The notes under the pieces were generated by a model. It had not been told where the DNA came from. It did no database searches and saw only the letters and a program-made list of their open reading frames with translations. A stretch of 64,000 nt of DNA, from contig NW_015971539.1 in the NCBI RefSeq assembly GCF_000182565.1, forward strand, positions 1,744,295 to 1,808,294. The letters run 5' to 3'. Every line of letters begins with the position of its first letter. The first letter of the stretch is position 1. The stretch comes from Spizellomyces punctatus DAOM BR117 (taxonomy: Eukaryota > Chytridiomycota > Chytridiomycetes > Spizellomycetales > Spizellomycetaceae). Both the position numbers and the translations under genes were made by a program. Below are positions 5,089-48,030 of this stretch, piece by piece.

Positions 5089-7192
5089 ATGGATCCGGAT
5101 TGCATGACTCAGATCACGGGAAATGAGTCATTCAGCAGCAGGGAAGACACTTTGGCAAATGCACAGTGGTCTGAAGATTGCTTTTCATCCGCCATGTCCG
5201 CCTTTGGTTTTGCAAAATTCGCTGCCGCGGCACGCCGACCGCACATGCCGCGGTTGGACAGTGAAGCCAACCTGTCAGAAGCCGCGGTTGGTGCTATTGA
5301 AGTACTAGATATCACAGATCCAGTTTTGCTAGGTGCATCTTCGTCCTCTGCGGCTGGACCTGCCCTCCCGCAAAGGGATCCAGATCGGCAAGCGGGTAGG
5401 TTGTTCTTACAAACCTTAGTGCGTGGTCGAAGCGCAACGCAGGTCGAGCTAAAACCGAACATGTGTTAGCTTTTACGAACGGGTCCTCATCTCGACCTGT
5501 GCCACCTGCCCCAGAAGCCACCAGAGAACCTGCTTCAAGAGCGTCCCGCTCGTCGCTTCCATATCAACTGCTACCGCGGACAAGTTCTCGGACGTTTGAC
5601 CGAATATCACTGGACGATATAGAGGGAGAGTCGTCCGAGTCTGACGTTGAGGACGCGCCACAGGACGGTGGTCTCGAACACGGTGGACAAGGGGTTAGTT
5701 TTGCAAGCCAATTGATACCATTTCAAATGCTTACTGTCTTGCGGTCAAACCTACTAGTCACTAGGTGGAGCCCACGTATCAAACAACACGATAAACGTGA
5801 GTGTCCGCCATGTAAATCCCCATTCCGTGCAGCATCTCCGCGAAGAAGCGGATTTCGACAATACATTTGAGCCTCCGCACCCTGTTGGCCCAACATCGAC
5901 ACCCGTATCAACACGATCGTCGGGTGTCGCGGACCTGGATTCCTTTGTTCTCAAGTATGTCGCTCCTAAAAACACGTCTATAATTGGTCATTTGACACCT
6001 TTCCTTCACAAAGACCTATACCCATGGGCCAAAAGCTCCAATGTAAAATTATCCGTCGCAAGGAAGGCATCGACAAATTATACCCAAAATATGAATTGTA
6101 CATCGAAGAATCTGAAGAGTCACAAGTGTTCATATTATCTGCTCGAAAGCGGAAGAAATCTAGCTCTTCACATTACATTATTAGTACGACACGGTTTCCG
6201 TCTAAACGTGATAAGGACCATATTGTGGCTTCTGTAAGGTACGATTGTACCATTTTGCAAAACTGGCAGATAATAACGGCATCTGATGTATTGAGTTGGA
6301 TTATCCAGATCAAATTTTTTGGGGACAGCGTTTGCGATCTATGGCGTGGACGGCAGTAATGTAAATGCCACAGATAAAGTGGAGGAACGACGGCAAGAGT
6401 ATGGGGTCGTATTATATGTGGGTTTGCCCGTGTGGTGAGAATGGATTTGACAAGTCTTTTATACTAACATGCCTCATTTTCACAGGAGCCTAATCTTTTG
6501 GGATTCAAGGGCCCTCGAAAAATGACCGTCATTCTTCCGTCCATGACGCGTGAGGGGAAGCGGATTGATATACGACCGTCCGATGTTAGTATATCATCAT
6601 GAGTCTTCACATCATATGTTTAGCACTCACGATACCTTGTATAGGAGAAGGAGACGCTCTTTGGACGATATCGTACTCGAAATGATCGTGATATATTGAC
6701 CTTACACAATAAGGCACCACAATGGAATGATGGTGAGTTCTCACGTATGGGTAGATCATGTACGCAGAGGAAATTTACCGTCTGTATTTGGCGTAGAAAC
6801 GCAATCGTTTGTGTTGAATTTCAATGGACGGGTAACGTTGGCCTCGGTCAAGAATTTCCAGATAGTCCATGATAATGACTGTAAGTAATCTCGCAAACTG
6901 TTCGCCTGTGACATTTTGTTGATGCGGAACTCTGTTTAGTGGATTATATTATCATGCAGTTTGGCAGAGGTAAATTGAGTCCATTGATTGCAATGTGTTT
7001 GCAAATTGACTTACTTTGAGTGGAAATAGTAAGCGAAGATACATTCACCGTTGATTTTCAGTATCCCATGTCGTGCATTCAGGCATTTGCCATCGCGTTG
7101 ACAAGGTGAGTAGCTTAGATACAAGGTGACAGAGAGTTGCCATTTCTTATTCAAAGTTTTGTAGCTTCGATGCCAAGCTGGCTTGTGAATGA
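5089..7192 (+). CDS. Tubby-like protein
   Basis: Phosphoinositide-binding protein; animal TULP3/Tubby carry membrane cargo to cilia with IFT-A. About ten exons could be chained. The N-terminal third is low-complexity, Ser/Ala/Asp-rich. The Tubby beta-barrel starts at about 5930 with DSFVLKPIPMGQ, then [11 protein letters not shown], the [14 protein letters not shown] segment, [41 protein letters not shown]-type and [11 protein letters not shown] motifs, and ends with the highly conserved tail SFDAKLACE followed by TGA at 7190-7192. The RKRKKS loop and the C-terminal helix are the parts that bind PIP2 and form the central helix in known structures. Exon joins were phase-checked at 5395/5470, 5693/5758, 5796/5833 and around the FVLK junction. 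The start at 5089 is the least certain part. Confidence 0.92.
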
Positions 7193-17397: not shown

Positions 17398-20594
<3,197 letters not shown>

Positions 20595-36257: not shown

Positions 36258-37130
36258 TTAATCCTTTTTGAATTCGCCGCTGGTTTCGGCGGCAATGTCA
36301 TTCAAAGCCGATGTGGCCTTAGTCTGCAATCGATATAGATTAGTCATACGAGAACCTATGGCATTAAACCGGGGAATAAGTACCTTCAGCTTGGCAAAGT
36401 GACCATCAATGACCTTCTCCTCAGAAATCAGGTAAGGGCGAACAAATTTGAAATACAAGAACTGAGCGCCCTGTGCCGTAGAAAAGAAAGCATGAGTATC
36501 AAGCGGGACGGGACTTTGCCGAAACATGACTATTTGTACCTGGAACTGAGGAACTATTTTGGAATGACAGAAATGGCGACCGATGAGATAGAGAAGATGC
36601 GAATACAAAAGAAGATGTACATACGGATAAGGTAGAGGATCAATGCGGCCTTGAATGTGTAGTAGAATGGAATCCAGTAAAGCAACGCATCAGAGAAGAA
36701 TTCCAGCACGTTCAAGAAGCCAAAAACTGTCCAGTAAATGAGCCTGGGTGACAATAAGGCAACCAAGGTTAGACAATTTTCACAAATGGACAATTGGTTG
36801 TGCAAACCACACCATTGAGTATCATCATTCTTGTTCACAGACTCGATAGCTTTGAAGGATGCGTATGCGGGGTAGAGGAATCCCAACAAATTGGTCAACA
36901 AGGAGCCCCATATGTTGAAGAAGATCAGCAAAGCGGCAAAGACACCAACTCCGCCGACTGCGTAAGTCTTGGGGAATCCCGTGCGTCGCTCGATTTCAAG
37001 CGTGATCGGGATTTTGGACAATTCAACATCAAACTATTTTGACATGAATAGATTAGAAGGAGGCCAAAACCTCACTCGCCACCGAGACACAACCCACCTG
37101 TTTGAGGTATTGCTGGAATTTGTCAGACAT
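36258..37130 (-). CDS. YOP1: Reticulon-like ER-shaping protein YOP1 (REEP/DP1 family)
   Basis: Hairpin protein that bends tubular ER membrane. N-terminus MSDKFQQYLKQ in a tiny first exon (37130-37098), joined over a 65-nt intron to FDVELSKIPITLEIERRTG. The TB2/DP1/HVA22 domain follows: long hydrophobic hairpins (AVGGVGVFAALLIFFNIWG, LLTNLLGFLYPAYASF), KAIESVNKNDDTQWL, then IYWTVFGFLNVLEFFSD and ALLYWIPFYYTFKAALILYL and a late GAQFLYFKFVRPYL segment. The C-terminus is hydrophilic and helical, ending at 36258. The DDTQWL-YW and PFYY motifs are strong markers of the family. Confidence 0.92.
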
Positions 37131-45555: not shown

Positions 45556-45858
45556 TTGAGACGATGAGTGCTCCTGGTCCAGAGTGTGCTGTGGGCGAGT
45601 TTCCAATGCTTGACATGAGTCATTGTTGATATAGCAACAGTAGAATACACGTGCCTTGATGATGCAACTCTTTGGAGGCAAGTTCCCGACGACTTTTGCG
45701 TCTTGTCCTGCACCTCCTAAAAGACAATTTGACTAGCAGGTGAGCTATGGAACAGTCGGATTGCGAATGCACTATTGCAAGCAACTCACTATCGACGTCC
45801 CTCCTACTTCAGCCTTTTGCCTGGCTTTCTCTAGAGACCTTTAATAGACGGGGCAGAA
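45556..45858. promoter_or_regulatory. Divergent promoter (303 bp)
   Basis: Between the ATGs of the RQT4-like gene (minus) and the phosphotransferase gene (plus). No distinct element recognised. Confidence 0.45.
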
Positions 45859-47846
45859 ATGGCCTTCTTCACACCACAAGACGTTAAAGCTTTGAAAAGC
45901 TACAAATACAGCGGAGTAGACAAGTCGATAATATCGCGATACATAGTTTGTATCTTCCCGTCCTTGTCAGAACCTTTATTTGCTTCCGTGTAAGCCATAA
46001 CCATTCTCACTTGTGATAGTTGAATCCCTACTGGTGGAACAACTTGGTCAAGATTTTCCCATTATGGTTTGCGTACGTATACTAACAGAGAGAATCCTTG
46101 ATGTGATGCTGGGTCGGTACTGATTGGAACGTAATATCATGTGTAGCCCCAACCTCATAACGCTGACGGGTCTGAGCATTGTTGGGGCCAACGTCATGCT
46201 CCTTCTCTACTACTCGCCTGACCTTCAAGAACCATGTCCGAATTGGGTCTACTACAGGCAAGGAGAGACGAGTATATGAGCTAGTTTGACTCAGATCCTT
46301 AATAGAGAACTAATTCGAGGACTGCCTATAGTTTTGCTGTCGGCCTCTTTCTATACCAGTCCTTCGACTCGATAGATGGAAAACAAGCGCGTCGAACGGG
46401 GACGAGTGGACCTCTCGGGGAGCTTTTTGATCAGTGAGTGTACGAATCGTGATTACCGCTGTCTGCCAGAAAACCTTACCCATGTTTCCGTGCAGTGGTA
46501 TGCATTGTGTGCGCAATTGCCACGCCAGGATTAGTCAACCTATAGCTATCATTTGATATCACAACTAACTTAATTTGTTGTATTAAACCATAGGATGTGA
46601 TGCCCTCAATACCACAGTACGTAGAGTTGGTGCATTCGATTGTCTCATCGCGTCGCTAACCAGGCAAGCTCTACCATTAGTTAGGAGGACTTCTACTTGG
46701 TTCGGCAATGAATCTTCATCAGTCATGGTGGCTGATTTTCAGTTTGATGTCCGGTAAGTCCTTGCATTAGCTCTGTCTTTGAGGATACGTCGCATACCCA
46801 CATGTCGTAGCGCTTGGCAATTTTTATCTGAGTACATGGGAAGAATATCACACTGGAACATTATATCTTAGTTACTGCAGTGGGCCCGTGGAGGGCATTC
46901 TGTTGATCGTGTTCATTTTCATAGTATCTGGCCGATATGGTGAGTGAACGGATATACCGATTTCATACACTGGCATCTTCTAACAATAGTGCAGGGCCTG
47001 AAATCTGGGATCGCCGTATATCTGCCACGTTTCCGAGTGTCGCTTCTCTCCTGCCTTCTACAATTGCGGAATTAAGGCTGAACGAATACTTTCTTGGTAT
47101 TGGTGCGGTGTTTCTTGTATTCAATATTGTCAGCGGGTATGTCGCTTTGTTGTCAAAAAAGGCACTGCTGCAGCCTCAACGTATGTTGTTGTAGGGGATT
47201 GAACGTCTTCCGCGCCTCCGGTGCACGGAAAAGGAGCACCGTTGTTGCTATGCTGGGCCTTCTTCCCTTTGTTGCCTTCACTTTTGGCATTTTCACGTGG
47301 CTGAAACTCTCGCCATCTATTCTAACGACGCATCTAATCCCCTTTTCGTTACTGGTCGGCTGTCTATTTGGTCACCAAGTCGGAAAGATGATTATCGCGC
47401 ACGTCTGTCGGCGCTCATTCCCATACTTTGATTTTCCGATTTTCTTGATCGTAACGATCGGGAACTTGAGTGCCTTTGTTTTCCGTAATTGGGAGCTTAC
47501 GGATGGTGCCAATTCTGGTCCCGTCCTCCGTAGCGCTTTTCCCAATGAGCTGTCTCACTGGCTTCAGGGTCTCTTGGAAAAACTCTTTGGTCACGTGGAA
47601 AGGATTGAGGACGCTGCTTTCATGGAAGGAACTATTGTGCATGTTCTGCTCTGTGTTGCCGTCTTTGCGTATCTGAGATTTGCGTTAAGGGTGATTCACG
47701 AACTGTGCGAGATCTTTGACTGTCATTGCCTGAGGATCAAGAAGAAAGTTATCAAAGTTCATGGAACTGCAAAGTTTCCGCATGGAAAGGTTGGACGGGA
47801 GGGTACCCCTGGGAGGATGGGGGAAGAAAATCGAAAGTTGGAATAG
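45859..47846 (+). CDS. Choline/ethanolaminephosphotransferase
   Basis: ER/Golgi membrane enzyme that transfers phosphocholine or phosphoethanolamine from the CDP-alcohol to diacylglycerol, the last step of the Kennedy pathway. Start [19 protein letters not shown], then [20 protein letters not shown]. The CDP-alcohol phosphatidyltransferase motif DG-x2-AR-x8-G-x3-D-x3-D is complete: [19 protein letters not shown] then HGCD. The last part depends on an unusual splice: GAT CA ends at 46433, a 2-nt exon TG (46496-46497) follows, and GATGTGAT opens at 46594, together giving Asp-His-Gly-Cys-Asp. The rest has about eight hydrophobic spans and a basic C-terminus ending at 47846. Specificity (choline versus ethanolamine) is not decided here. 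Confidence 0.92.
46496..46497 (+). other. Predicted 2-nt microexon
   Basis: Two bases (TG) bordered by an acceptor (ttccgtgcag ending 46495) and a donor (gtatgc from 46498). Including them restores His-Gly-Cys-Asp in the catalytic motif; skipping them creates an in-frame CAG-ATG-TGA stop. Confidence 0.7.
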
Positions 47847-48030
47847 ATGGGATTATCGGTGTAAGGATAAATTACGCTTATAATAGTTGATAGTATACAG
47901 TGGTCAAGAATGATTCTTCTTTCATTGGTGCTTGCCTCGCCACTGATGTATGCGCCAGATGTCATGTCATCTCATTTCATGTACATTGTATTACATATTT
48001 ACAAATGTTTACGGTCATCATGATATATCA

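What the first reader, a model, noticed from the sequence alone, without database searches (positions are those of the whole stretch)
46434..46593. A 2-nt microexon inside the catalytic motif of a choline/ethanolaminephosphotransferase
The universal Asp-His-Gly-Cys-Asp end of the CDP-alcohol motif cannot be read with one intron. Direct joining of 46433 to 46594 gives a premature stop. Placing TG (46496-46497) between a good acceptor (ttccgtgcag) and donor (gtatgc) gives exactly His-Gly-Cys-Asp. Exons this small are very rare and are normally missed by gene finders.
Basis: partly seen in the sequence, partly recalled or inferred. Interest (0 to 1): 0.88.

Follow-up and report, generated by a model that had tools for sequence, protein, structure and literature searches.

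The report
Two-base exon inside phospholipid enzyme gene
A chytrid fungus gene for an enzyme that makes major membrane lipids appears to contain an exon only two bases long, which completes the enzyme's proposed catalytic histidine; without it the reading frame breaks, so ordinary gene-finding is likely to lose the active site.

Summary
At 46434-46593 a CPT/EPT-type choline/ethanolaminephosphotransferase gene (45859-47847, + strand, 457 aa) cannot be joined by one canonical intron. Direct joining reads ...FDQM-stop, and the only open one-intron GT/GC-AG solution deletes the motif. Of 155 two-intron GT/GC-AG structures, 10 stay open and 1 keeps the CDP-alcohol motif: the TG exon at 46496-46497. 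It also has the best splice score, 18.4 against 9.2. Its acceptor and donor lie at the 75th and 41st percentiles of 418 introns predicted in the same genome. In 524,588 nt there are 206 AGYGGT words, and only this one has both sites this strong. TG supplies the last base of His118 and the first of Gly119. His is present in all 300 of 307 listed relatives that have an intact motif, and is a proposed catalytic residue (PMC10182977). A Spizellomyces relative's model (96% identical where it aligns) lacks the N-terminal half. No RNA and no relative's DNA was reachable. One-nucleotide exons are known in Arabidopsis and Fusarium, so this is a new, very small member of a known kind, probably spliced as two short introns one after the other.

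The parts
45859..47847 (+). Choline/ethanolaminephosphotransferase (CPT/EPT-type) gene, 10 coding exons, 457 aa
   Evidence: Spliced by homology; PF01066 44.3 bits, cut-off 22; solved structure chain 8ul9_A, Cholinephosphotransferase 1, E=7.4e-72
46332..46433 (+). Exon 4, encodes ...[19 protein letters not shown] and ends in CA of the His118 codon
46434..46495 (+). Intron A, 62 nt, GT-AG; donor 16th, branch point CCTTACC 11th, acceptor 75th percentile of 418 predicted introns
46496..46497 (+). 2-nt microexon TG: third base of His118 codon and first base of Gly119 codon
   Evidence: only motif-keeping structure of 155 two-intron combinations
46498..46593 (+). Intron B, 96 nt, GT-AG; donor gtatgc 41st, branch point ACTAACT 80th, acceptor 59th percentile
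46594..46616 (+). Exon 6, 23 nt, encodes rest of G-C-D-A-L-N-T-T
46258..46331 (+). Neighbouring GC-AG intron (donor CAG|gcaagg)

Best explanation
This is a working CPT/EPT-type phosphotransferase gene of a Spizellomyces-like chytrid, in which two ordinary short U2-type introns lie 2 nt apart and leave a constitutive 2-nt exon (TG). The likely mechanism is intron definition with sequential removal. The spliceosome pairs the sites of intron A (62 nt) or intron B (96 nt) rather than spanning 160 nt. Once one intron is out, TG belongs to a larger exon and the second intron can be removed. If A goes first, the new donor context CATG|gtatgc scores higher than before. Shown: the sequence anatomy, the frame need, the uniqueness of the solution among those enumerated and the quality of the sites. 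Inferred: that splicing happens this way, that inclusion is constitutive, the order of removal, and that failed inclusion yields only truncated transcripts.
For: Only 1 of 155 two-intron GT/GC-AG structures keeps the motif, and it scores 18.4 against 9.2 for the next. The one open single-intron solution deletes the motif. Both sites are ordinary for the genome; the donor rises from the 41st to the 61st percentile after removal of intron A. So strong an AGYGGT occurs once in 524,588 nt, namely here; 0 of 20,000 shuffles hold one. His at this place in 300 of 300 motif-bearing relatives, out of 307 listed; His133/Glu129 of xlCHPT1 are proposed as catalytic (PMC10182977, passages). The rest of the gene is open, with 66% identity to a Thoreauomyces protein over 94% of its length. 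The paralog in the same genome carries FDHGVD uninterrupted. The Spizellomyces 'palustris' model is 322 aa, has no PF01066 match and lacks the N-terminal half.
Against: No RNA read, cDNA or protein across the junction was reachable, which admitted fragments of about 83-262 aa, listed nothing above 69% identity among its best 120. Intron A's branch point is weak (11th percentile), and other introns of this gene also have weak parts, e.g. intron 1 with donor at the 7th and branch point at the 1st percentile. My crude gene finder does not predict this gene correctly even with tiny exons allowed: its best model scores 1.4 nats and the curated gene -11.0. Elsewhere it of 361 internal exons at 15 nt or less, so splice scores alone prove nothing. 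No DNA of a relative was available, and three related chytrid models (P0001-P0003) read straight through the motif, which does not show whether they have the introns.
Confidence: 0.9

Rival explanations
1. Assembly or sequencing error: two bases lost at an exon edge, so that the true gene has one intron of about 160 nt and the internal TG is coincidence.
For: No read data were available. A contiguous TG beside either edge would restore the frame.
Against: The coincidence would need an AGYGGT with both sites this strong inside the intron: 0 of 20,000 shuffles, 1 in 524,588 nt, namely this one. The separately annotated Spizellomyces 'palustris' model is broken in the same gene, which is suggestive only.
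Confidence: 0.05
2. One non-canonical intron or a nested twin intron (stwintron) is removed as a block, with another residue in place of His.
For: A GT...AT removal of 46434-46591 would give D-Q-G-C-D in frame. Stwintrons are known in fungi (PMC6616335, PMC8469720; starts of abstracts in a search listing).
Against: All 5 block removals found that keep the Asp spacing and stay open have non-canonical ends and give Q, L or I instead of His. His is in 300 of 300 motif-bearing relatives. No block removal can insert TG.
Confidence: 0.02
3. The gene is a decaying pseudogene.
For: The frame fails without the microexon, several splice sites of the gene score low, and a paralog in the same genome could cover the function.
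Against: All other exons are open and join in frame at GT-AG or GC-AG sites. The 3' part is 96% identical to a second Spizellomyces species, and the strong TG site would be coincidence.
Confidence: 0.03

Closest known systems
1-nt exon of Fusarium CYP621A genes (PMC12940212; abstract, introduction, results and discussion read)
   Same: Fungal gene; tiny exon inside a conserved motif; needed for phase; flanked by AG and GT within an over-long apparent intron (139 nt there, 160 nt here)
   Different: 1 nt, not 2; in a P450; supported there by orthologs and 18 SRA reads; no RNA support yet here
1-nt exon of Arabidopsis APC11 and plant VPS55 (PMC4674806, PMC8831610; passages read)
   Same: Ultra-small exon restoring the frame; the APC11 authors propose intron definition combined with recursive-like stepwise removal
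   Different: Plants, 1 nt, validated experimentally and widely conserved
Recursive-splicing ratchet points (PMC4674806 discussion passages; PMC8605326 start of abstract in listing)
   Same: Acceptor and donor nearly touch; the donor is used after the first intron has gone
   Different: Ratchet points have juxtaposed sites in long introns and leave nothing in the mRNA; here 2 nt stay and both introns are short
Trichoderma Xlr2 20-nt microexon switch (PMC11121469; passages read)
   Same: Fungal microexon inside a functional domain, missed in annotations
   Different: 20 nt and regulated by glucose; here 2 nt, regulation not tested

Membership tests
CDP-alcohol phosphotransferase (PF01066), CPT/EPT type | Pfam match over the curated cut-off | tested here: met
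   44.3 bits against 22 for the microexon-spliced protein; the 119-aa skip product still scores 31.6 over a shorter stretch
CDP-alcohol phosphotransferase (PF01066), CPT/EPT type | Motif D-G-x2-A-R-x8-G-x3-D-x3-D with the eukaryotic Glu and His | tested here: met
   Only in the TG-exon structure; Glu/His extension from PMC10182977
CDP-alcohol phosphotransferase (PF01066), CPT/EPT type | Choline- or ethanolaminephosphotransferase activity | not testable with these tools
   Needs an assay; substrate preference unknown
Ultra-small (1-5 nt) spliceosomal exon | Flanked by credible acceptor and donor, two introns of viable size | tested here: met
   75th and 41st percentile sites; 62 and 96 nt
Ultra-small (1-5 nt) spliceosomal exon | Required for reading frame and conserved residues | tested here: met
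Ultra-small (1-5 nt) spliceosomal exon | Seen in mature mRNA | not testable with these tools
   No RNA data held; among the best 120 listed in each no protein near-identical across the junction appeared
Ultra-small (1-5 nt) spliceosomal exon | Conserved in orthologs | tested here: inconclusive
   Models are broken here in Spizellomyces 'palustris' (P0004) and Fimicolochytrium (P0005) but not in Thoreauomyces, Geranomyces or Phlyctochytrium; no DNA seen
Stwintron (nested twin intron) | Whole intervening stretch removed, outer exons joined in frame | tested here: not met
   Joining with canonical ends gives a stop; 5 block removals stay open with the Asp spacing, all with non-canonical ends and without His

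The most novel reading that the evidence does not exclude
An old intron near CATG|G (hinted at by gene models of other early-diverging fungi that go wrong just after D-H-G) was joined by a second intron 2 nt upstream in the Spizellomyces lineage. The resulting 2-nt exon is conserved there, removed in a fixed recursive-like order, and its inclusion acts as an on/off control on phospholipid synthesis, since each of the four mis-spliced or unspliced products examined ends or leaves the frame within the active-site motif.
Probability: 0.1. Interest if true: 0.7.

Novelty: new member of a known kind. Interest (0 to 1): 0.52.

Why it matters
It would be among the smallest exons proposed in any gene, in a chytrid fungus and at the proposed catalytic residue of a core lipid enzyme. 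It gives a sharp test of how a spliceosome handles an exon probably too small for acceptor and donor to be bound at once. It also warns that an apparently missing or truncated conserved gene can be an annotation artefact: the Spizellomyces model found lacks the half that carries the catalytic motif. The method used here (protein motif plus splice enumeration) can be applied to other over-long introns with frame failures.

Tried and rejected
One-intron solutions with GT/GC-AG ends (donors 46400-46479): 1 open, motif lost. Two-intron solutions (first donor 46405-46519, introns of 40 nt or more, middle exon under 90 nt): besides the TG structure, 9 are open, with middle exons of 2 (TG after another donor), 5, 17, 20, 38 or 54 nt; none keeps the motif and all score 9.2 or less. 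Block removals with any ends, including stwintrons: none gives His.

Training splice models from pairs of long open frames failed: too noisy, one script crashed, and one search showed no clear branch-point signal. In the discarded model intron B's acceptor stood only at the 3rd percentile; I set that model aside because its consensus had drifted (branch-point and donor columns no longer looked like splice signals), not because of this value. A small self-trained gene finder on 262,294 bases worked (418 introns, canonical consensus). Its introns are predictions, and a length limit of 170 nt was built in. That finder does not recover the target gene.

A scan of the prokaryote genome contigs gave 7 pattern matches, none confirmed as a relative. 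Two protein searches that could have shown a separately annotated N-terminal half listed nothing above 69% and 80% identity in their best 120. Searches for print: microexon + fungi + 2-nt 0 papers, microexon + Spizellomyces 0, six phrasings of a 2-nt exon 0, microexons + fungal + introns + tiny exons 0, microexon + chytrid 3, judged from the listing only. The library holds open-licence papers only, and PMC12940212 itself cites 2-5 bp exons in Arabidopsis, Drosophila and humans.

Full report
What is there. The finding lies in a + strand gene whose exons I rebuilt from homology: 45859-45945, 46020-46072, 46147-46257, 46332-46433, 46496-46497, 46594-46616, 46681-46753, 46811-46939, 46995-47136, 47195-47847. 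They give a 457-aa protein. It matches PF01066 at 44.3 bits (cut-off 22) and the solved Cholinephosphotransferase 1 chain 8ul9_A at E=7.4e-72. Its best listed relatives are chytrid proteins, such as Thoreauomyces at 66% identity over 94% of the query; a 322-aa Spizellomyces sp. 'palustris' protein is 96% identical over 63% of the query. The genome (24.0 Mb, 29 contigs) is therefore inferred to be Spizellomyces or close to it; no tool names it.

The frame problem. Exon 4 ends in ...GELFD plus CA. Joining 46433 to 46594 reads D-Q-M-stop. Keeping intron A, or the whole stretch, reads D-Q-stop. Keeping intron B alone runs out of frame to a stop. Of the one-intron GT/GC-AG joins tried, one is open and it removes the motif. 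Of 155 two-intron joins, 10 are open in frame and exactly one keeps D-G-x2-A-R-x8-G-x3-D-x3-D: the TG exon after 46433. Its summed site score is 18.4 bits; the next is 9.2. Block removal with any ends near the two edges has 5 open solutions that keep the Asp spacing. All have non-canonical ends and give Gln, Leu or Ile in place of His. This also disposes of a nested twin intron.

Are the sites real? A small gene finder trained on 262,294 bases of this genome (window plus 20 stretches) yielded 418 predicted introns with a clear AG|GTAAGT, CTRAY, YAG consensus and a median length of 67 nt. Against these, intron A has its donor at the 16th, branch point at the 11th and acceptor at the 75th percentile. 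Intron B has 41st, 80th and 59th. Other introns of the gene are no better as a group: intron 1 has its donor at the 7th and branch point at the 1st percentile. Lengths of 62 and 96 nt are typical, while only 10 of 418 predicted introns are 160 nt or longer, under a 170-nt limit. In both strands of the sample (524,588 nt) AGYGGT occurs 206 times, and only at this place are both flanking sites at least this good. Requiring only that both exceed the 10th percentile of intron sites gives 9 cases, 0.0027 per 160 nt. None of 20,000 dinucleotide shuffles of 46434-46593 reproduced it.

Why those residues matter. TG gives the last base of His118 and the first of Gly119. Searches list 307 distinct relatives (the best 120 of each, out of 3345, 981 and 2030 matches). 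Of these, 300 have the intact motif and all 300 have His there; Cys is less fixed (HGC 147, HGV 140). The Glu four residues before His is present in 293 of those 300. In Xenopus CHPT1 His133 and Glu129, which by motif spacing correspond to His118 and Glu114 here, are the proposed catalytic residues, and the authors add them to the eukaryotic signature (PMC10182977, passages). The paralog on contig C1 carries FDHGVD without interruption, much as an intronless P450 served as a yardstick in the Fusarium paper.

Relatives. Seven of the 307 lack the motif: P0004, P0005, P0057, P0063, P0065, P0094 and P0303. P0004 (Spizellomyces 'palustris') lacks the N-terminal half. Its first residues (MPSI...) correspond to the ATG in window exon 6 read in another frame (the correspondence is my reading). 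P0005 (Fimicolochytrium) jumps from F-D-Q over the stretch H-G-C-D-A-L-N, as expected if an intron starts after CA. P0063 and P0065 depart right after D-H-G, P0094 after D-H, and P0057 has one extra residue after D-H-G, which hints at an old intron at about CATG|G. P0303 was not examined. Thoreauomyces, Geranomyces and Phlyctochytrium models read straight through. Without DNA these are hints only; wrong models have many causes. No near-identical separate N-terminal model was listed: nothing above 69% identity in the best 120, nor above 80% in those.

How it works. The acceptor of A and the donor of B are 2 nt apart, so they are unlikely to be occupied at once (inference). Short introns favour pairing across the intron (general knowledge). 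After removal of A the donor context becomes CATG|gtatgc and rises from the 41st to the 61st percentile. Removal of B first would be equally productive. The authors of the Arabidopsis 1-nt exon paper proposed the same combination of intron definition and stepwise removal (PMC4674806, passages). Order and efficiency are untested here.

Known or new. One-nucleotide exons are established in Arabidopsis APC11 and plant VPS55 and, with RNA reads, in Fusarium CYP621A. The latter paper cites 2-5 bp exons in Arabidopsis, Drosophila and humans. I found no paper on a 2-nt exon by the phrasings, and none combining microexon and Spizellomyces; (microexon, chytrid) gave 3 papers seen in listing only. So the kind is known and the instance appears new. 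RNA proof is the missing piece.

Limits. The splice reference set is predicted, not verified, and includes the window. The same gene finder of 361 internal exons at 15 nt or less (genes scoring 12 or more, both strands, overlaps not resolved) and does not recover the target gene: its best local model scores 1.4 nats, the curated gene -11.0. So splice scores alone are weak evidence. The case rests on the motif, the frame and the scarcity of such a site taken together.

Noticed in passing
46258-46331: Neighbouring intron of the same gene is of GC-AG type with a strong donor context (CAG|gcaagg).
   Followed up: partly
L006 (match G000:C1:1922047-1922475, minus strand): A second CDP-alcohol phosphotransferase in the same genome, 45% identical over residues 74-216, with FDHGVD uninterrupted by an intron.
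   Followed up: partly
L001 1501-1776 (G000:C1:252363-252638): Another CDP-alcohol phosphotransferase (PF01066, 83.3 bits), probably cardiolipin synthase; that name is my reading, no call names it.
   Followed up: no
L006 2954-2970: Short interstitial run of TTAGGG-like repeats upstream of the paralog.
   Followed up: no
Window - strand about 45714-45716, 20262-20265, 19122-19132 and 36540-36553; + strand 6866-6880; L015 7051-7052: My gene finder calls further tiny exons here (6 of its 11 calls of 15 nt or less), one of them also 2 nt (L015); unverified and probably mostly false, but each could be checked against protein relatives.
   Followed up: no
P0063, P0065, P0094, P0057, P0005: Gene models from several other fungi go wrong at or just after the D-H-G of the motif, hinting at a shared intron near CATG|G.
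   Followed up: partly
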